Assembly (NCBI RefSeq): GCF_035621495.1
Contig: NZ_CP141821.1
Location: 1,392,760-1,456,759, forward strand
Source: Thermococcus sp. SY098
GTDB lineage: Archaea > Methanobacteriota_B > Thermococci > Thermococcales > Thermococcaceae
Direction: 5' to 3'
Length of the DNA stretch: 64,000 nucleotides
Position numbers and translations under genes: made by a program
Notes under the pieces: model-generated
Seen by the model: the letters and a program-made list of their open reading frames with translations, nothing else
What the model was told of the DNA's origin: nothing
Databases searched by the model: none
Part shown: positions 25,463 through 37,666 of the stretch, piece by piece
Position numbering within the stretch: position 1 is the first letter of the stretch
Layout: every line of letters starts with the position of its first letter

Positions 25463-25521
25463 TGCAATGATGATTGATGGGCGAACCGACGGATGAGGAT
25501 GGAAAGGTGATCGCTGAGCAT
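25463..25521 (+). ncRNA. C/D box sRNA (rRNA 2'-O-methylation guide)
   Basis: C box ATGATGA at 25467-25473, a 12-nt guide (TTGATGGGCGAA), D' box CCGA at 25486-25489, spacer CGG, C' box ATGAGGA at 25493-25499, a 14-nt guide, and D box CTGA at 25514-25517. Flanks TGTGC and GCATA can form a terminal stem. A TATA-like GTTTAAG at 25431-25437 fits a start near 25462. The D' guide complements UUCGCCCAUUAA of archaeal 23S rRNA (from memory, one G-U pair), next to the A-loop. By the fifth-nucleotide rule it would methylate the C near E. coli 2558. The D guide is unassigned. Confidence 0.8.
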
Positions 25522-25554
25522 AGGTTTTTATACTTCTCTTTAAATCTCTTTTTG

Positions 25555-25607
25555 GGATGATGAGTTCAGCCTTGCCTGATGTGTGATGAGGGAGTGACGG
25601 ACTGACC
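25555..25607 (+). ncRNA. C/D box sRNA (16S rRNA 2'-O-methylation guide)
   Basis: Canonical dual guide: C box ATGATGA 25557-25563, guide GTTCAGCCTTGC, D' CTGA 25576-25579, spacer TGT, C' GTGATGA 25583-25589, guide GGGAGTGACGGA, D CTGA 25602-25605; GG/CC flanks. A TATA box TTTTTATAC at 25525-25533 gives it its own promoter and a T-rich run follows. From memory of archaeal 16S rRNA, the D' guide pairs over 11 nt with GCAAGGCUGAA, predicting methylation of the G near E. coli 902. The D guide pairs over 10 nt with CCGUCACUCC, predicting methylation of U1406 in the decoding region. Confidence 0.9.
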
Positions 25608-26597: not shown

Positions 26598-28877
26598 TCA
26601 CCGAACATATATTCGGTTCCCCAAATGTGGAAGAATATTCTTTAAGGGCACAATCACAATAAGTTTCCATACTTTGATGGTGTCTATGTTTATTGTTATC
26701 CATCTACCATTTTGGGTATAGCTTAGATATCTCCTCTCTTCCTCAGGGGATATTGAAAAGACCTCCGTGATTTCATAACTTTCTGGAAGCTTTAGCTTTA
26801 TTTTTATATTTTTTTCTGGATTTGTCCAGTCATGGATTTTATTGTAATGATAGTTGTAATTTACAAGGTTAAGGATGAGTTCATTGGAGTCCAACTTTTT
26901 TATAGGTGTTATCATGATACCCTCTGAGGCATTTGTGTTGAGAAGCTTATCTTTTCCTAAAGCTGAGTTTATCTGATCGGCAATATATCTGAAGAGCTCC
27001 ATATTGGGTTCCTTCTTACCAAGTGAGTCCCAATATGCTTTTCCAACTTTATTTACAACGATAACATTTTCCCTGCTTAGCAAATCATTGAGCTCCGTTT
27101 GTTTGTTGTTCATCTCGTCATATCTGGCGAAATCTGATGTTGTAATAAGCTTTCCTCCATTCTGCAGAAATTCTTCAATCCTGCTAAGATCACGGGATGA
27201 AATCCTGCTTAATCCCGGAGCTATCAGAAGCTTGTATTTCCCAAGTCTCTGATAAGAATCTGTTTCTAAGATCCCATCCATTCCAAGGAAGAGTACGTCA
27301 TATGGAACATGCATCTGCTCTAAGGCACGTGCCCATCCTCTGATTTCATCGTAGTATTCATCACTCTTTCGAATTCCCAGTGCTGGGAAGTACTGCCAGA
27401 TTGCAGTTGGAAGGGAGACTACAAGTGCAACATTAGAGTACGAAGCTGTATTCTTGAAAAGCCTTTGCATGTTCGATATAAATTGATAGTATCTGGAAAC
27501 TCCTTCCCTTTCACTTCCATCAACCAGCCTGTGAGGAGGCCATCCCTCATCTGGTGATCCCGTTCCAAATGGAACAAGCATTATACAGCCAGGATTGCTG
27601 TATATTTCTGCGATTCTTAGTTTTATCATTGTGGAAACATCTGATGGTGCAGTTTCGGGTTTAAAAGGATTTGCAAACCAGAGAATCCACTCTCCAACCC
27701 AAACAAGTTTTGTGAAATTTGACGAGGCTCTGGCAAGCTTGCATACCACTCCATTGGTTTGATAAGGATAAGGTCTGAACTGACTAATCTCAACATAGAC
27801 AACATCCATATAAGGTGTCAGGGTTATCTGGGGGATCCATGCAAAGTATTCATTTGTTGTTAACAAAATTTTCCTATGGCTTTCCTCTGCATATTCTCTG
27901 GTTTCCATTGAAACATTCCTAACGAGAGCTATTGCGGACTGATACCAGTATAACAGTGCCTCCTTTACAACAGGATCTGATAGAACTTCGCTGTTGTTTT
28001 CAAATTCCACTAATTCAAATGGCCAAGATGTTAAAAATCTCTCCCTAAATGGGACGGGAACTGAATATGCTCCTTTTATGGGGTATTTATTTTCCAAGTA
28101 AGTTTTTAAACAGAAATTATTTATATCTTTAATCCCGAGCTCTAAAAGCTGACTTCTGGTGAATTTTGACTTTAGGTAGTTTATAAATCCACGGCCTTCC
28201 CATGTATCCTTACAGCCCCAGCCCCCACCCCAAACGAATGTAAAAATACCATCAGAGCTGTCAAAAAATATTGCATCGGCCCCAGAATCAACGGCTTTTC
28301 TTGTCCAATATAGTAGAAAATTCCTCCAGTATGGATTTTGGGGTTGCATTATTCCGTAGAAATCTCTTCTCCTAAGTTCCTCCCCTATAATTCTTATGGT
28401 AAGGTGACCTGAAAATGAGCGGGATAGCCCCACGGTATACGGATCTGAAGCTATGGTTCCATTGGGATATCTCCACCTTTTAGAGTAGGGAATTATATGC
28501 CTGTAATAATATAAGAAACCAATTTCCGAGTTGTAGGGGTCATAAACAGAATCCCCAACATGCCATCCCATAGTTATTCCAACGGGAATGTCATATGCAT
28601 GAGAAAGTGAAATGAGTGATTGGATGTGTCTCCACGCCTCAGGATATTTCATCCATGGCCGATAATCTATCCATGCCTGAACTGTGTTATGAAGAAATTT
28701 AAGCTTATAATCGTTTTTTATCTCGTTCAGCATATCCCCGTAGAACTCAATCCTGAAGGCATCTGCCACAACGATTGAGTTATCCCATTGGATGGCTGCT
28801 GATACATTTGCAATTTCAATTAGTACAAAAATCGTGAGAAATACTACTATTCTCTTGGTGCTTAAATTGACAAACAT
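26598..28877 (-). CDS. secreted TIM-barrel glycosidase-like protein with GATase1-like domain
   Basis: A 759-residue protein with an N-terminal signal peptide (KRIVVFLTIFVLIEIANVSAA). Residues about 30-480 look like a TIM barrel of glycoside-hydrolase type (VGITMGWHVGDSVYDPYN, AVDSGADAIFFDSSDGIF, FDSSD being a possible catalytic site). About residues 500-610 resemble a class I glutamine-amidotransferase-like or beta-galactosidase trimerisation domain (YKLLIAPGLSRISSRDLSRIEEFLQNGGKLITTSDFA). The last 100 residues are beta-sandwich-like. Exact activity unknown. ATG at 28877 behind GGTG. Promoter TATA-like element near 28905. Single gene. Confidence 0.7.
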   Translation of the reverse strand: MFVNLSTKRIVVFLTIFVLIEIANVSAAIQWDNSIVVADAFRIEFYGDMLNEIKNDYKLKFLHNTVQAWIDYRPWMKYPEAWRHIQSLISLSHAYDIPVGITMGWHVGDSVYDPYNSEIGFLYYYRHIIPYSKRWRYPNGTIASDPYTVGLSRSFSGHLTIRIIGEELRRRDFYGIMQPQNPYWRNFLLYWTRKAVDSGADAIFFDSSDGIFTFVWGGGWGCKDTWEGRGFINYLKSKFTRSQLLELGIKDINNFCLKTYLENKYPIKGAYSVPVPFRERFLTSWPFELVEFENNSEVLSDPVVKEALLYWYQSAIALVRNVSMETREYAEESHRKILLTTNEYFAWIPQITLTPYMDVVYVEISQFRPYPYQTNGVVCKLARASSNFTKLVWVGEWILWFANPFKPETAPSDVSTMIKLRIAEIYSNPGCIMLVPFGTGSPDEGWPPHRLVDGSEREGVSRYYQFISNMQRLFKNTASYSNVALVVSLPTAIWQYFPALGIRKSDEYYDEIRGWARALEQMHVPYDVLFLGMDGILETDSYQRLGKYKLLIAPGLSRISSRDLSRIEEFLQNGGKLITTSDFARYDEMNNKQTELNDLLSRENVIVVNKVGKAYWDSLGKKEPNMELFRYIADQINSALGKDKLLNTNASEGIMITPIKKLDSNELILNLVNYNYHYNKIHDWTNPEKNIKIKLKLPESYEITEVFSISPEEERRYLSYTQNGRWITINIDTIKVWKLIVIVPLKNILPHLGNRIYVR

Positions 28878-28955
28878 CACAAGCACCTTTTAATAATGTA
28901 GATTCACATGTATAAAATCCTTTTGTTTAGATTTAGTGTGGATATTTGGGTTATA

Positions 28956-32979: not shown

Positions 32980-35580
32980 TCATCCAATTGTGACCTCTGC
33001 AAACGTGCTTATTGTGTCTGCATCAGTCCATTCCTGTCCTGGATCGAGGTCGTGAACTGATGGATCGTCTGGCAAGGTCTCCACTGCTGAATCGCCGGCG
33101 TTTGCTCCGGTTATCCATGCCACTATGCCGATCTTTGTCGGCTTTCCTCCAAGGGCATCCCACGGAATTGCGACTTCTAATGTCTGCAGACCGTTTGTAC
33201 TCCCTGTCCATGCTACAAATCCGAGATCTTGAAGGTTATAGTACTGCCATCCAGTGCCGTTCCAGAGCACAAGCTGCATGGTTTCAATTCTGTCAGTTCC
33301 TTTCTCTCCAAAGAACTCCCCGAACCACCAGAAGTAAAGTTCTGCATCAACACCTCTTGTGAAGCTTATTTTTCTTCCCCATCCATCGGTATCCCCTGTA
33401 TAGCCACCATCTTTATAGTCTAAGGCAAATCCATAGGCAATTCTCCATGAAGCTTTGTTTTCAGTTGTTAATGCGATGTAAAGGAAGTTATCATCGTAAT
33501 CGACATACAGTGCTTTAAGATTTGCCCCCTGCTGTCCAAAGCCTGTTGTATCTTCATAAACCAATGTTTCTGGACTCCAATCATCTAAATTGCCGTCAAT
33601 CTTCTTTGTAAGCTTATTGGCTAAGAGCTCGCCCTGCACTGCATTGAGGAACTTTTCAACTTCTCTCTGAATTCTTAGGAGCCTTGAATATGCCGCAAAT
33701 ATTTTCAAGCTTCCTCTGAGCTCCATGTTCCTTATTCCTATCATCTCCCTCCCTTCATTGAACATGGAAAGGCTTTCATTAAGCTGCATCTGGAAGTTCG
33801 TTATATTCTCTCTGTACTTAATTGGAAGCTTTGCTGCAGTTAAATTTTTGAGGAGTTCTTCGACCAGGGGGTACTTCTTTTCATAAAGCCTTGGCCATAC
33901 ATACTTGCCAAGGTTTATCATGTCGCTCTGGGTCTTTACTGCTTTTCCAATTTCAAGTTCCAATGTGGCAATGTTGTTTTCCTCATTGACCTCTTGAATA
34001 ACATTTTCAGGGTCAACAACTGCTTTGAAGACGTGAGTTCCCCATGAACCGGGATATTCGTAGGTGTACACCAAGTTAACTGAGCTTTCCGCGGAAACAT
34101 TTACAATCCACGAACTGAGAAGTTCATCATTGTCATAAAGCTCAACTTTAACGTTCTTGGCATCAACTTTGCCCAGGTTTTGGACTTCAACTGTTAGGTT
34201 GGCTGGCTGCCAGGGTTCTATGTCCAGGACATTTGAACTCAATTTTACAGTTAATTCGGGTTTTGGAATTGGGATTTCGATTACTGCAAAGTTCGATAGA
34301 TAGTCTTGGTCTGTCCAGTCACTCCCATCAACGTCTGGGTCTAATGGAACAGTATCAACGGCTGAATCGCCACCAAAGCTACCTGCAACCCATGCTATTA
34401 TGGCGAGTTCAGATGTTCTTCCTCCTATAGCACTCCATGGAATTGCCATCTCAAGGATCTGCAATCCATTTCCGCAGGTGGCAGCATATGTAACAACACT
34501 TCCAACATCTTGATAGTCCCAGCCGTTCCCATTCCAAGTTATGAAGTTTCCACCACCAATTTTATCATTTCCACTGTCGTACCAGAAGTAAATCTCGTAA
34601 TCTATCCCTCTTGAGAATCCTATTTTTCTTCCCCAAGCATCGGTATCTCCGGTATATCCCCCATCTTTGACATCAAGCCCAAATCCGTAGACGATTCCCC
34701 AGCTTGCAGTATTGTTTGTTGTTAATGCTATGTAGAGGTATTTGTCATCGTATGAAACATACAATTTGTCCAGATCTGCACCATCTGGACCATCTAATGT
34801 GCTGACTCCAACAATCTCGTAGTTTTCCCAATCACTTAGGTTGCCGTCGATGGTCTTTGGAGCTACCTGGATTTCTGCGAGATTTGTGAAGTAATCAGTA
34901 TCTCCCCATTCATCTCCGTTGAACCAGCTGGCATAAGGTTCATCAAGACTTTCCATCGCTGGGTCCCATGGCACAGAGCTGACTGCTGAGGAATCTCCCC
35001 CGCCTGCAATCCAAGCTATCAGTGCGAGCTTTTCTGGTTTTCCACCGAGCGCTGTCCAGGGAATCTTAACCTCCAATGTCTGGAGACCGGTTGAGGTGTC
35101 TCCGGTGTATGCAAAACCTGCCCCAACGTCTGCCAGCGCTTTATAGTCCCATCCTCCGCCAGTCCATGTAATGAAGTTGTCTGCTGTGATGCCGCTACCA
35201 CCGCTATACCAGAAGTAGATCTCGTAGTCAATTGCATATCCGTTTCCAAAGCCAATACGTCTTCCCCAAGCATCCATGTCTCCAGTGTATCCATTTCCGG
35301 TTCCTGGATCAATGTCAATTCCAATTCCATAAGCCAAGTCCCAGCTTTGAGAATTCCTTGTGGTTATCATAATGTACAGATATTCATCATCCCATGCAAC
35401 ATATAGGTTATTCAGATTTGCACCTGCGAGCCCATTGTCGTTGGCTGTAGCTATATAATCAAGTGTTCCCCAGTCGCTTAAGCTTCCATCAAGAACTTTT
35501 GTTCCATAAAGTCCACTCACTGCTGGCACTAAGCCCAGCACAATAAGTACAACAATAACAAAACTCAGACCTTTTTTCAT
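32980..35580 (-). CDS. secreted protein with three carbohydrate-binding-like repeats and CARDB domain
   Basis: An 866-residue protein. It has a signal peptide (residues 1-23). Repeats of about 200 residues at roughly 25-245 and 246-440 share motifs DGNLSDW, LYVAWDDEYLYI, YTGDTDAWGRKIGF, DYEIYFWY and LEVAIPW. A CARDB-like domain follows (PELTVKLSSNVLDIEP, about 445-545). A helical stretch (about 545-660) precedes a third repeat (about 665-866). The repeats resemble the C-terminal modules of Thermococcales amylopullulanase, but no catalytic domain is present. It is divergent from 4-alpha-glucanotransferase and probably binds starch at the cell surface. Start ATG behind GGGGTGAC. Last residues ATIG. 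Confidence 0.82.
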   Translation of the reverse strand: MKKGLSFVIVVLIVLGLVPAVSGLYGTKVLDGSLSDWGTLDYIATANDNGLAGANLNNLYVAWDDEYLYIMITTRNSQSWDLAYGIGIDIDPGTGNGYTGDMDAWGRRIGFGNGYAIDYEIYFWYSGGSGITADNFITWTGGGWDYKALADVGAGFAYTGDTSTGLQTLEVKIPWTALGGKPEKLALIAWIAGGGDSSAVSSVPWDPAMESLDEPYASWFNGDEWGDTDYFTNLAEIQVAPKTIDGNLSDWENYEIVGVSTLDGPDGADLDKLYVSYDDKYLYIALTTNNTASWGIVYGFGLDVKDGGYTGDTDAWGRKIGFSRGIDYEIYFWYDSGNDKIGGGNFITWNGNGWDYQDVGSVVTYAATCGNGLQILEMAIPWSAIGGRTSELAIIAWVAGSFGGDSAVDTVPLDPDVDGSDWTDQDYLSNFAVIEIPIPKPELTVKLSSNVLDIEPWQPANLTVEVQNLGKVDAKNVKVELYDNDELLSSWIVNVSAESSVNLVYTYEYPGSWGTHVFKAVVDPENVIQEVNEENNIATLELEIGKAVKTQSDMINLGKYVWPRLYEKKYPLVEELLKNLTAAKLPIKYRENITNFQMQLNESLSMFNEGREMIGIRNMELRGSLKIFAAYSRLLRIQREVEKFLNAVQGELLANKLTKKIDGNLDDWSPETLVYEDTTGFGQQGANLKALYVDYDDNFLYIALTTENKASWRIAYGFALDYKDGGYTGDTDGWGRKISFTRGVDAELYFWWFGEFFGEKGTDRIETMQLVLWNGTGWQYYNLQDLGFVAWTGSTNGLQTLEVAIPWDALGGKPTKIGIVAWITGANAGDSAVETLPDDPSVHDLDPGQEWTDADTISTFAEVTIG

Positions 35581-35586
35581 ACTGAG

Positions 35587-35601
35587 TCACCCCGGGTGAT
35601 A
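35587..35601. promoter_or_regulatory. imperfect glycolytic-motif-like inverted repeat
   Basis: TCACCCCGGGTGATA carries TCAC-N5-GTGATA, close to the Thermococcales glycolytic motif TATCAC-N5-GTGATA. It overlaps the ribosome binding site of the minus-strand secreted protein and probably its transcription start: a minus TATA-like ATATATCAAC is at 35614-35623. It may be a second operator or only the ribosome binding site by chance. Confidence 0.4.
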
Positions 35602-35655
35602 ATTGTTCACCCTTGTTGATATATGAGCATGATAATGTTTATATACCTTTTTGAA

Positions 35656-35672
35656 TATCACCGTTAGTGATA
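35656..35672 (+). promoter_or_regulatory. Thermococcales glycolytic motif (TGM) in divergent starch promoter
   Basis: TATCACCGTTAGTGATA matches TATCAC-N5-GTGATA exactly. This is the binding site of Tgr/TrmBL1, the regulator that senses maltodextrin. It lies about 10 bp downstream of the TATA box GTTTATATACC (35637-35647) and 20 bp upstream of the GH57 ATG. That position is associated with repression of glycolytic genes in the absence of maltodextrin. It is upstream of the minus-strand gene's TATA box, where it could act differently. Confidence 0.88.
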
Positions 35673-35692
35673 ATTATGATGGAGGTGTCGCA

Positions 35693-37666
35693 ATGATAAA
35701 TTTCATCTTTGGCATTCATAATCATCAGCCCCTTGGGAACTTTGGGTGGGTTTTTGAAGATGCTTACAACAAATCATACAGACCATTTATGGAGATCCTT
35801 GAAGAGTTTCCCTCAATGAAAGTTGCTGTTCATTTCAGCGGTCCCCTCCTTGAATGGATAAACGAAAACCATCCAGAGTATATTGAGCTTTTGAGAAAGC
35901 TTGTAAAAAGGGGTCAGCTCGAAATAGTTGTTGCAGGATTTTATGAGCCGGTGTTAGCAGCAATACCAAAGGAAGACAGGATTGAGCAGATAAAACTCCT
36001 TAAGGAGTTTGCTAAGAAGTTGGGTTATGACGCAAAGGGTGTATGGCTTACTGAAAGGGTGTGGCAGCCAGAATTGGTAAAAACTCTCAGGGAGAGTGGA
36101 ATTGAGTATGTTATAGTAGATGATTACCACTTCATGAGTGCCGGACTTAGCAAGGAAGATCTTTACTGGCCGTACTATACTGAAGATGGGGGAGAAGTTA
36201 TAGTTGTATTCCCAATTGACGAAAAGCTAAGGTACCTGATTCCTTTCCGTCCCGTAGAAAAGACCATTAGATATTTGGAAAGCTTAGCTGACAGCGATCC
36301 TTCAAAGGTCGCTGTTTTCCATGATGACGGTGAAAAATTTGGAGTTTGGCCTGGAACTTATGAATGGGTTTATAAAAAAGGCTGGCTTAGGGAGTTCTTT
36401 GATGCCGTCACAAGCAATGAGAGAATAAACCTCATGCTTTACTCTGAGTATCTTTCGAAGTTTACCCCAAGAGGGCTCGTCTATCTGCCGATAGCATCAT
36501 ACTTTGAAATGAGCGAGTGGTCTCTGCCAGCAAAACAGGCAAAGCTTTTTGTTGAGTTTGTTGAAAAATTGAAAAGGAGAGGAGAGTTTGAAAAGTACAG
36601 GGTATTCGTTAGGGGCGGCATTTGGAAGAACTTCTTCTATAAGTACCCGGAGAGCAATTTCATGCACAAAAGAATGCTCTATGTTAGCAAACTTGTCAGA
36701 AATATTCCTGAAGCGAGGGGGTACATACTTAAAGCCCAGTGCAACGATGCCTACTGGCATGGTGTCTTTGGCGGTGTTTATCTGCCTCACTTGAGGAGAG
36801 CAGTTTGGGAGAACATCATAAAGGCACAGAGCTATGTCACCACTGGAAACAGGGTTTTTGACGTGGATTTTGATGGAAGAGATGAAATCATGCTTGAAAA
36901 TGGAAGGTTTATAGCAACGATCAAGCCTCATTATGGAGGCTCAATCTTTGAGCTTAGCTCAAAGAGAAAAGCTGTTAACTACAACGATGTTTTAGCAAGA
37001 AGATGGGAGCACTACCACGAAGTTCCCGAAGCAGCAACTCCAGAGGAAGAAAGCGAAGAGGGCGTTGCAAGCATTCATGAGCTTGGTAAGAAAATCCCTG
37101 AGGAAATTAAGCGTGAGCTGGCTTATGACTGGCACCTCAGGGCTATTTTGCAAGATCACTTCATATCAACTACGGAGACTCTTGATACTTACCGCTTAGT
37201 TAAATATCATGAGCTTGGAGACTTCGTTAATCAGCCGTATGAATTTGAGCTTAATGGAAATAGTGTAAAGCTTTGGCGCAATGGGGGAGTATATGCCGAG
37301 AAAAAAGTTCTGGCAAGAGTTAAGAAAGAAATTGAGCTTACAAATGACGGCTTCTTGGCAAAATACAGCGTTTCACTTGGCGAGCCTTATGAAGTCCTCT
37401 TTGGAGTTGAACTTAACTTAGCCGTTCACAGCGTCATGGAGAATCCAGAGGAATTTGAAGCCGATAGAATACTCGTGAACGACACTTACGGTATTGGTAA
37501 AGTTGAGATAATCTTAGACAGAAAAGTTAAGGTATGGAAATTCCCAATTAAAACCCTCTCACAGTCGGAGAGTGGCTGGGACTTCATTCAGCAAGGAGTA
37601 AGCTATACTCTGTTGTTCCCAATAGAGAAGGAGCTTGAGTTTGAGATTAGGTTTAAGGAGCTCTGA
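35693..37666 (+). CDS. GH57 4-alpha-glucanotransferase
   Basis: A 657-residue cytosolic enzyme that transfers maltodextrin segments between alpha-1,4-glucans (amylomaltase activity). It is highly similar, from memory, to the Thermococcus litoralis enzyme (jgt) over its full length. The nucleophile Glu121 is in GVWLTERVWQPE and the acid/base Asp212 in VFHDDGEKFG. The domain opening FIFGIHNHQPLGNFGW is typical of GH57. The C-terminal beta domain (PYGIGKVEI-like and WDFIQQGVSYTLLFPIE) is complete. ATG at 35693 behind GGAGGTG; an upstream frame crosses the TGM. Controlled by the TGM at 35656. Confidence 0.97.
   Translation: MINFIFGIHNHQPLGNFGWVFEDAYNKSYRPFMEILEEFPSMKVAVHFSGPLLEWINENHPEYIELLRKLVKRGQLEIVVAGFYEPVLAAIPKEDRIEQIKLLKEFAKKLGYDAKGVWLTERVWQPELVKTLRESGIEYVIVDDYHFMSAGLSKEDLYWPYYTEDGGEVIVVFPIDEKLRYLIPFRPVEKTIRYLESLADSDPSKVAVFHDDGEKFGVWPGTYEWVYKKGWLREFFDAVTSNERINLMLYSEYLSKFTPRGLVYLPIASYFEMSEWSLPAKQAKLFVEFVEKLKRRGEFEKYRVFVRGGIWKNFFYKYPESNFMHKRMLYVSKLVRNIPEARGYILKAQCNDAYWHGVFGGVYLPHLRRAVWENIIKAQSYVTTGNRVFDVDFDGRDEIMLENGRFIATIKPHYGGSIFELSSKRKAVNYNDVLARRWEHYHEVPEAATPEEESEEGVASIHELGKKIPEEIKRELAYDWHLRAILQDHFISTTETLDTYRLVKYHELGDFVNQPYEFELNGNSVKLWRNGGVYAEKKVLARVKKEIELTNDGFLAKYSVSLGEPYEVLFGVELNLAVHSVMENPEEFEADRILVNDTYGIGKVEIILDRKVKVWKFPIKTLSQSESGWDFIQQGVSYTLLFPIEKELEFEIRFKEL

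What the first reader, a model, noticed from the sequence alone, without database searches (positions are those of the whole stretch)
32980..37666. Non-catalytic starch-binding surface protein and glucanotransferase under one glycolytic motif
The 866-residue secreted protein has three amylopullulanase-C-terminus-like repeats and a CARDB domain but no catalytic part. It diverges from the GH57 4-alpha-glucanotransferase. The exact TATCAC-N5-GTGATA between them, plus an imperfect copy at 35587-35601, suggests maltodextrin-controlled coexpression. It may be a surface starch-capturing scaffold, analogous to bacterial SusE/F-like binding proteins but in archaea.
Basis: partly seen in the sequence, partly recalled or inferred. 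Interest (0 to 1): 0.6.

Follow-up and report, generated by a model that had tools for sequence, protein, structure and literature searches.

The report
Starch-binding protein paired with glucanotransferase promoter
Two divergently read archaeal genes, one for a secreted starch-binding protein related to one already known in Pyrococcus furiosus and one for an enzyme that rearranges starch breakdown products, sit back to back across one conserved promoter that carries the recognition sites of a sugar-sensing regulator on both sides.

Summary
An 866-aa secreted protein without a catalytic domain (32980-35580, -) lies divergent to a GH57 4-alpha-glucanotransferase (ATG 35693), with the exact TATCAC-N5-GTGATA between them. 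The protein is not new in kind. It is a short homologue of P. furiosus PF1109/PF1110, reported as an extracellular, starch-induced, starch-binding protein whose promoter TrmBL1 binds in vivo. By fold and by a weak profile match they resemble CBM74, the starch-binding module of Ruminococcus bromii Sas6, and CBM9. No membrane or lipid anchor is visible, so "surface scaffold" is unproven.

In about 40 Thermococcaceae genomes the same divergent pair keeps an exact motif on the glucanotransferase side, two degenerate copies at near-fixed spacing on the binding-protein side, and a single TATA box with A-rich elements on both flanks. The backward element covaries with presence of the binding-protein gene (7-8 independent pairs for, none against). 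I infer one bidirectional promoter silenced by TrmBL1/Tgr until maltodextrin appears. No binding or expression was measured here.

The parts
32980..35580 (-). Gene for the 866-aa secreted, non-catalytic starch-binding-type protein (short form of the PF1109/PF1110 family, arCOG07086)
35512..35580 (-). Signal peptide (aa 1-23, MKKGLSFVIVVLIVLGLVPAVSG)
   Evidence: sequence; the only strongly hydrophobic segment; the homologue PF1109 carries a class I signal
34861..35508 (-). Repeat R1, CBM74/CBM9-like beta-sandwich
   Evidence: AF2 pLDDT 89; Foldseek best hit CBM74 7uwv E 2.7e-8; repeat profile matches 7uwv at E 0.002
34270..34863 (-). Repeat R2, same domain
   Evidence: 49% identical to R1, 53% to R3
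33964..34263 (-). CARDB domain (aa 440-539)
   Evidence: Pfam E 4.8e-16; matches the solved CARDB of PF1109, 3idu/2kl6
33616..33945 (-). Helical spacer (aa 546-655)
   Evidence: full-length AF2 model, helices 546-655, moderate confidence
32983..33615 (-). Repeat R3, same domain
35585..35601 (-). Operator-like site O3, TATCACCCGGGGTGACT; its right half overlaps the ribosome-binding site GGGGTGA (35587-35593)
   Evidence: kept about 35 nt from the TATA end in many relatives, degenerate in part of Thermococcus
35605..35621 (-). Operator-like site O2, TATCAACAAGGGTGAAC
   Evidence: conserved at 14-16 nt from the TATA end in 17 of 17 non-redundant promoters
35638..35645 (.). Single conserved TATA box TTTATATA, proposed to serve both genes
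   Evidence: TTTATAT invariant in 17 of 17 aligned loci
35646..35652 (-). Backward BRE-like element (AAAAAGG on the - strand)
   Evidence: present in 40 of 40 loci with the divergent gene and 8 of 22 without it
35656..35672 (+). Exact Thermococcales glycolytic motif O1, TATCACCGTTAGTGATA, downstream of the glucanotransferase TATA
   Evidence: exact in 43 of 43 non-redundant loci with the divergent gene
35693..37666 (+). GH57 4-alpha-glucanotransferase, 657 aa
   Evidence: PF03065, PF09094, PF09095; end-to-end match to the T. litoralis enzyme 1k1w

Best explanation
A two-gene starch unit under one bidirectional promoter. The 866-aa protein is exported and holds alpha-glucans (starch, long maltodextrins) outside the cell with three CBM74/CBM9-like modules, spaced by a CARDB and a helical segment. 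The GH57 enzyme, without a signal, reshuffles the imported maltodextrins in the cytoplasm. Without sugar, TrmBL1/Tgr sits on O1 over the glucanotransferase start region and on O2/O3 over the binding-protein start region, and blocks initiation in both directions from a single BRE-TATA-BRE core. Maltose or maltotriose releases it and both genes come on together. Shown here: sequences, domain content, conservation of sites and spacing, co-variation of the backward BRE with the gene, and TrmB-type regulators in the genome, one beside the MD operon. Taken from literature on the homologue: starch binding, induction on starch, export, TrmBL1 binding. Inferred: start sites (about 35668 + and 35615 -), the shared TATA, repression and its relief, and the ligand of the repeats.
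For: Homology and matching architecture to PF1109. PF1109/PF1110 is listed as an extracellular starch-binding protein, starch-upregulated, with a class I signal (PMC3824201), and as a TrmBL1 ChIP target with the motif downstream of the promoter, as is PF0272, the P. furiosus glucanotransferase (PMC4706686). Repeat fold: AF2 pLDDT 89, top Foldseek hit CBM74 with maltodecaose, E 2.7e-8, and profile hits to CBM74 and CBM9, E about 0.002 each. The divergent pair recurs in 40 of the 73 glucanotransferase loci in the tree, with an exact motif throughout. O2 keeps a fixed and O3 a near-fixed spacing from the TATA. In this genome the same motif (<=1 mismatch) precedes the MD transport/amylopullulanase operon, a secreted GH13 enzyme (PF00128) and ORFs that I read as GAPOR, phosphoglucose isomerase and FBP aldolase. 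A 342-aa TrmB-family gene lies next to the MD operon, as Tgr/TK1769 does in T. kodakarensis (PMC4158304). The backward BRE follows gene presence in 7-8 independent comparisons and opposes it in none, p about 0.008. P. furiosus uses BRE-TATA-BRE cores bidirectionally with starts about 50 bp apart (PMC6640164).
Against: No binding, expression or start-site data for this organism. The CBM74 profile match is weak (E 0.002) and its sugar-contacting residues were not compared. O2 and O3 have 2-6 mismatches to the motif across relatives, and O3's right half doubles as a Shine-Dalgarno. A second AT-rich element (GATATATG) could be a separate TATA in this clade. The upstream BRE on the glucanotransferase side is weak in the window itself (GATAATG).
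Confidence: 0.7

Rival explanations
1. The motif serves the glucanotransferase only; the binding-protein gene is controlled separately, and its motif-like copies arise because the archaeal Shine-Dalgarno (GGTGAT) looks like half of the motif.
For: O3's right half is the ribosome-binding site. In this window alone 2-mismatch copies are at chance level. In several Thermococcus the copy near +35 has 5-6 mismatches.
Against: O2 lies upstream of the ribosome-binding site and keeps TCAC-N5-GTGA-like symmetry 14-16 nt from the TATA in all 17 non-redundant promoters. Four of five Pyrococcus relatives, where the gene is unlinked, keep a site with 1-2 mismatches at the matching place, and PF1109 is a TrmBL1 ChIP target.
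Confidence: 0.15
2. Two independent promoters back to back: the binding-protein gene uses the nearer AT-rich element (35620-35627) instead of the shared TATA.
For: ATATATCA stands upstream of the start codon in the window's clade.
Against: That element is not conserved in other Thermococcus, while TTTATAT is invariant. The backward BRE covaries with the gene. From the shared TATA, O2 has the same 24-nt spacing as the single site in Pyrococcus (my count).
Confidence: 0.25
3. The protein binds another polysaccharide or the cell envelope (adhesion or S-layer role) and not starch.
For: CARDB is an adhesion-type domain; CBM9 modules bind cello-oligosaccharides; arCOG07086 is described as a cell surface protein.
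Against: The characterised homologue is reported to bind starch and is starch-induced. The best fold match is a starch-binding module. Linkage to an alpha-glucan enzyme recurs across the family.
Confidence: 0.12
4. TrmBL1 activates one of the two genes, because each motif lies downstream of one gene's TATA and upstream of the other's.
For: TrmBL1/Tgr activates when its motif is upstream of BRE/TATA (PMC4158304).
Against: The homologues PF1109 and PF0272 both have the motif in the downstream, repressing position, and both proteins are needed on starch, not during gluconeogenesis.
Confidence: 0.1

Closest known systems
Pyrococcus furiosus PF1109/PF1110, extracellular starch-binding protein (arCOG07086)
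   Same: Class I signal, homologous CARDB directly after a repeat, operator downstream of its TATA, same family by sequence
   Different: Long form of about 1140 aa in Pyrococcus relatives with an extra domain after CARDB; not linked to the glucanotransferase gene in the Pyrococcus genomes held
Ruminococcus bromii Sas6 CBM74
   Same: Closest solved fold to the repeats; colinear weak sequence match at both ends; non-catalytic starch adherence
   Different: About 16% identity, one large CBM74 with inserts versus three compact repeats; bacterial amylosome
CBM9 of Thermotoga xylanase 10A
   Same: Core fold and N-terminal DG..DW motif
   Different: Solved with cellobiose; appended to a xylanase
TrmBL1/Tgr regulon promoters with the Thermococcales glycolytic motif
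   Same: Exact motif overlapping the expected start, same regulon genes in this genome
   Different: Two divergent genes share one TATA with operators on both sides; I found no description of this layout in the papers held
Bacteroides SusE/SusF
   Same: Non-catalytic proteins with tandem starch-binding domains
   Different: Lipid-anchored outer-membrane proteins beside SusC/D; none of that is present here
4-alpha-glucanotransferase of Thermococcus litoralis (1k1w)
   Same: End-to-end homologue with all three domains
   Different: Nothing notable

Membership tests
PF1109/PF1110 extracellular starch-binding protein | Sequence homology including CARDB and flanking repeat | tested here: met
   3idu match E 1e-10 across the repeat/CARDB border; family matches
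PF1109/PF1110 extracellular starch-binding protein | Export signal, no catalytic domain | tested here: met
PF1109/PF1110 extracellular starch-binding protein | Extra domain after CARDB (long form, about 1140 aa) | tested here: not met
   Window form is 866 aa, R-R-CARDB-helix-R; read as a short subtype, since both forms occur in the family
PF1109/PF1110 extracellular starch-binding protein | Starch binding | not testable with these tools
   Reported for the homologue only
TrmBL1/Tgr regulon | TATCAC-N5-GTGATA in the promoter | tested here: met
   Exact for the glucanotransferase; degenerate for the binding protein
TrmBL1/Tgr regulon | Motif downstream of BRE/TATA for repressed genes | tested here: met
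   O1 10-12 nt, O2 14-16 nt after the TATA box
TrmBL1/Tgr regulon | Regulator encoded in the genome | tested here: inconclusive
   Five TrmB-family places, one of 342 aa beside the MD operon as for TK1769; identity to Tgr not measured
TrmBL1/Tgr regulon | Response to maltose/maltotriose | not testable with these tools
   Needs expression data
CBM74 | CBM74 fold | tested here: inconclusive
   Best Foldseek hit, E 2.7e-8, TMq 0.66, but 16% identity and large target inserts
CBM74 | Sequence membership | tested here: inconclusive
   Profile E 0.002, equal to CBM9
CBM74 | Sugar-contacting residues | not tested
   Structure paper not held
Amylopullulanase C-terminal domain (PF09985) | Profile match | tested here: not met
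   No hit in 46 repeats; hhalign 0.3%
SusE/SusF | Lipid anchor and SusC/D linkage | tested here: not met
   No lipobox; no SusC/D-like neighbours
GH57 4-alpha-glucanotransferase | GH57 catalytic, middle and C-terminal domains | tested here: met

The most novel reading that the evidence does not exclude
One symmetric BRE-TATA-BRE core serves both protein genes, and a TrmBL1 tetramer or octamer bridges O1 and O2/O3 across it, so that one regulator assembly silences or frees both directions at once, each operator being downstream for one gene and upstream for the other; and the exported partner carries archaeal CBM74-like modules for helical starch.
Probability: 0.25. Interest if true: 0.6.

Novelty: new variant of a known kind. 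Interest (0 to 1): 0.45.

Why it matters
Archaeal promoters are known to fire in both directions from one TATA box, mostly described as producing non-functional antisense RNA. This locus looks like a conserved case where both directions make useful proteins under one sugar sensor, and where repeated natural gene losses show which half of the promoter decays. It also links a starch-binding family of hyperthermophiles, so far without a recognised module, to a starch module of gut bacteria, and both claims are directly testable.

Tried and rejected
Repeats as amylopullulanase or glucodextranase C-termini: rejected. A full-length AF2 model was too weak (pLDDT 61) to use beyond secondary structure. 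Paralogues of the repeats in the same genome: none. Plasmid relatives: none. The genome-contig scan found close Thermococcus relatives, a short Thermogladius fragment and a CARDB-only bacterial hit. P. furiosus itself was not recognised among the genomes fetched (its signal peptide was not found; best CARDB match 67%), so its gene was compared only through the solved CARDB and the literature. The Comfort 2008 and Sas6 papers could not be read, nor supplementary start-site tables. In one search two loci (L092, L098) were anchored on the wrong TATA and one (L087) failed the T-count rule; the corrected counts are those.

Full report
What is there. The window lies in a 2.03-Mb, single-contig Thermococcaceae genome. 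An 866-aa ORF (32980-35580, -) starts with a signal peptide and is followed, in divergent orientation, by a GH57 gene. Pfam finds only a CARDB domain in the 866-aa protein and the three domains of 4-alpha-glucanotransferases in the other, which matches the solved T. litoralis enzyme end to end. The GH57 start is most likely ATG 35693 and not the TTG at 35651, so the glycolytic motif is intergenic.

The protein. Three repeats (aa 25-240, 240-437, 656-866) are 45-53% identical to each other. CARDB and a helical stretch separate the second from the third. There is no catalytic domain, no second hydrophobic segment and no C-terminal anchor, unlike the genome's amylopullulanase, which ends in a Thr-rich stretch and a hydrophobic tail. 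The family is widespread in Thermococcaceae, mainly as forms of about 866 and about 1140 aa. Its characterised relative is P. furiosus PF1109/PF1110: called an extracellular starch-binding protein, found in the supernatant of starch cultures, up-regulated on starch (PMC3824201), with a TrmBL1-bound promoter (PMC4706686) and a solved CARDB domain.

What the repeats are. They do not match the amylopullulanase C-terminal family PF09985, two copies of which sit in this genome's amylopullulanase. A model of R1 (13 repeats in the alignment, pLDDT 89) has as its best solved matches four chains of R. bromii Sas6/CBM74, including one with maltodecaose (E 2.7e-8), then CBM9 (E 1.5e-4); what follows is at E 0.0015 or worse and mostly antibody domains. 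A profile of 46 repeats finds, independently, CBM74 (E 0.002, at both ends of the domain, in order) and CBM9 (E 0.0024) among all PDB sequences. I read the repeats as distant CBM74/CBM9-type modules; membership in CBM74 is not established.

The promoter. The exact motif O1 (35656-35672) is one of two exact copies in the genome. Sites with at most one mismatch precede the genome's MD transport operon, which is followed by the amylopullulanase, and a secreted GH13 enzyme. Other such sites precede ORFs whose N-termini I read as GAPOR, phosphoglucose isomerase, FBP aldolase and FBP aldolase/phosphatase (these four are named from their sequences, not searched). This is the known TrmBL1/Tgr regulon. 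A 342-aa TrmB-family gene lies by the MD operon, where T. kodakarensis has Tgr (PMC4158304). I then collected loci from 94 Thermococcaceae genomes. Of the glucanotransferase loci in the tree, the divergent family gene is present in 40 and absent in 32, with one unknown. With the gene present, O1 is exact in 43 of 43 non-redundant loci; without it, in 25 of 31 (these counts include four named-contig loci left out of the tree).

On the binding-protein side, O2 lies 14-16 nt from the TATA end in all 17 non-redundant promoters and a second, weaker copy (O3) lies about 35 nt from it in most; the summed mismatches of the best two sites average 7.4 against 11.1 +/- 0.30 in shuffles. In the Pyrococcus relatives that carry the gene unlinked, four of five show a 1-2-mismatch site just before the start, so the site belongs to this gene and is not a by-product of the neighbour. 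O3's right half is also the ribosome-binding site, so O3 is the weakest of the three. The in vivo TrmBL1 motif of P. furiosus is itself looser on its right half ([GA]TGA[TA][AT], PMC4706686), which suits these copies.

One TATA box. Only one TATA element is invariant between the two genes. A CTTT element just downstream of it, which is an A-rich BRE for the opposite strand, is present in 40 of 40 loci with the divergent gene and 8 of 22 without. The gene has come or gone at least 12 times on supported branches of the glucanotransferase tree. In 12 independent comparisons the element follows the gene in 7-8, differs in none the other way, and is unchanged in the rest (sign test p about 0.008). 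The eight gene-less loci that still have it include L084, which keeps the whole binding-protein promoter without the gene, as expected after recent loss. P. furiosus is known to transcribe both ways from BRE-TATA-BRE cores with starts about 49-50 bp apart (PMC6640164); the spacing here predicts about 53 (my estimate).

How it works. Shown: anatomy, conservation, covariation. Inferred: TrmBL1/Tgr blocks both starts until maltodextrin relieves it; the exported protein then gathers alpha-glucans while the cytoplasmic enzyme remodels imported maltodextrins. Whether the protein stays on the cell is open. A T. barophilus secretome study lists no protein of the matching mass (about 93-95 kDa), which is a mild warning; a genome held here whose size fits that strain encodes a 97% identical protein, but that identification is from memory.

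Novelty. The protein is a new member of a known family. The divergent layout with operators on both sides of a single TATA appears undescribed in the papers I could search. P. furiosus, by the literature numbering, has PF0272 and PF1109 far apart, and the genome whose size fits T. kodakarensis (G030, from memory; L099) lacks the family gene at this place, which may be why the layout went unnoticed.

Noticed in passing
window 26598-28886 (-): A 762-aa protein with a signal-like N-terminus and a weak beta-galactosidase trimerisation domain (PF08532, E 1.7e-6) may be another secreted or envelope carbohydrate protein.
   Followed up: no
L084 (about 110 bp before the glucanotransferase gene): The complete binding-protein promoter with its motif copies is kept although the gene itself is gone, a likely scar of recent loss.
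   Followed up: partly
L041 5315-7851, L035 3714-6326, L093: Broken copies of the binding-protein gene (split or frameshifted reading frames), fitting frequent loss; L035 could be an assembly error.
   Followed up: no
L036 5123-5858: A lone fragment of the repeat in a Thermogladius metagenome bin, outside Thermococcales and without obvious starch genes nearby; transfer or contamination.
   Followed up: no
L049 and L054, N-terminal part: Family variants in which the first two repeats are replaced by another domain, in L049 with a weak PF09985 match (E 0.00077), so domain types seem to be exchanged within this family.
   Followed up: partly
L129, L131, L132, L133: In a deep glucanotransferase clade the exact motif overlaps the TATA region itself (GGTTATATCAC), a different operator position without the divergent gene.
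   Followed up: no
window 25463-25607 (+): Two C/D box sRNAs (Rfam sR1 and sR60) side by side.
   Followed up: no
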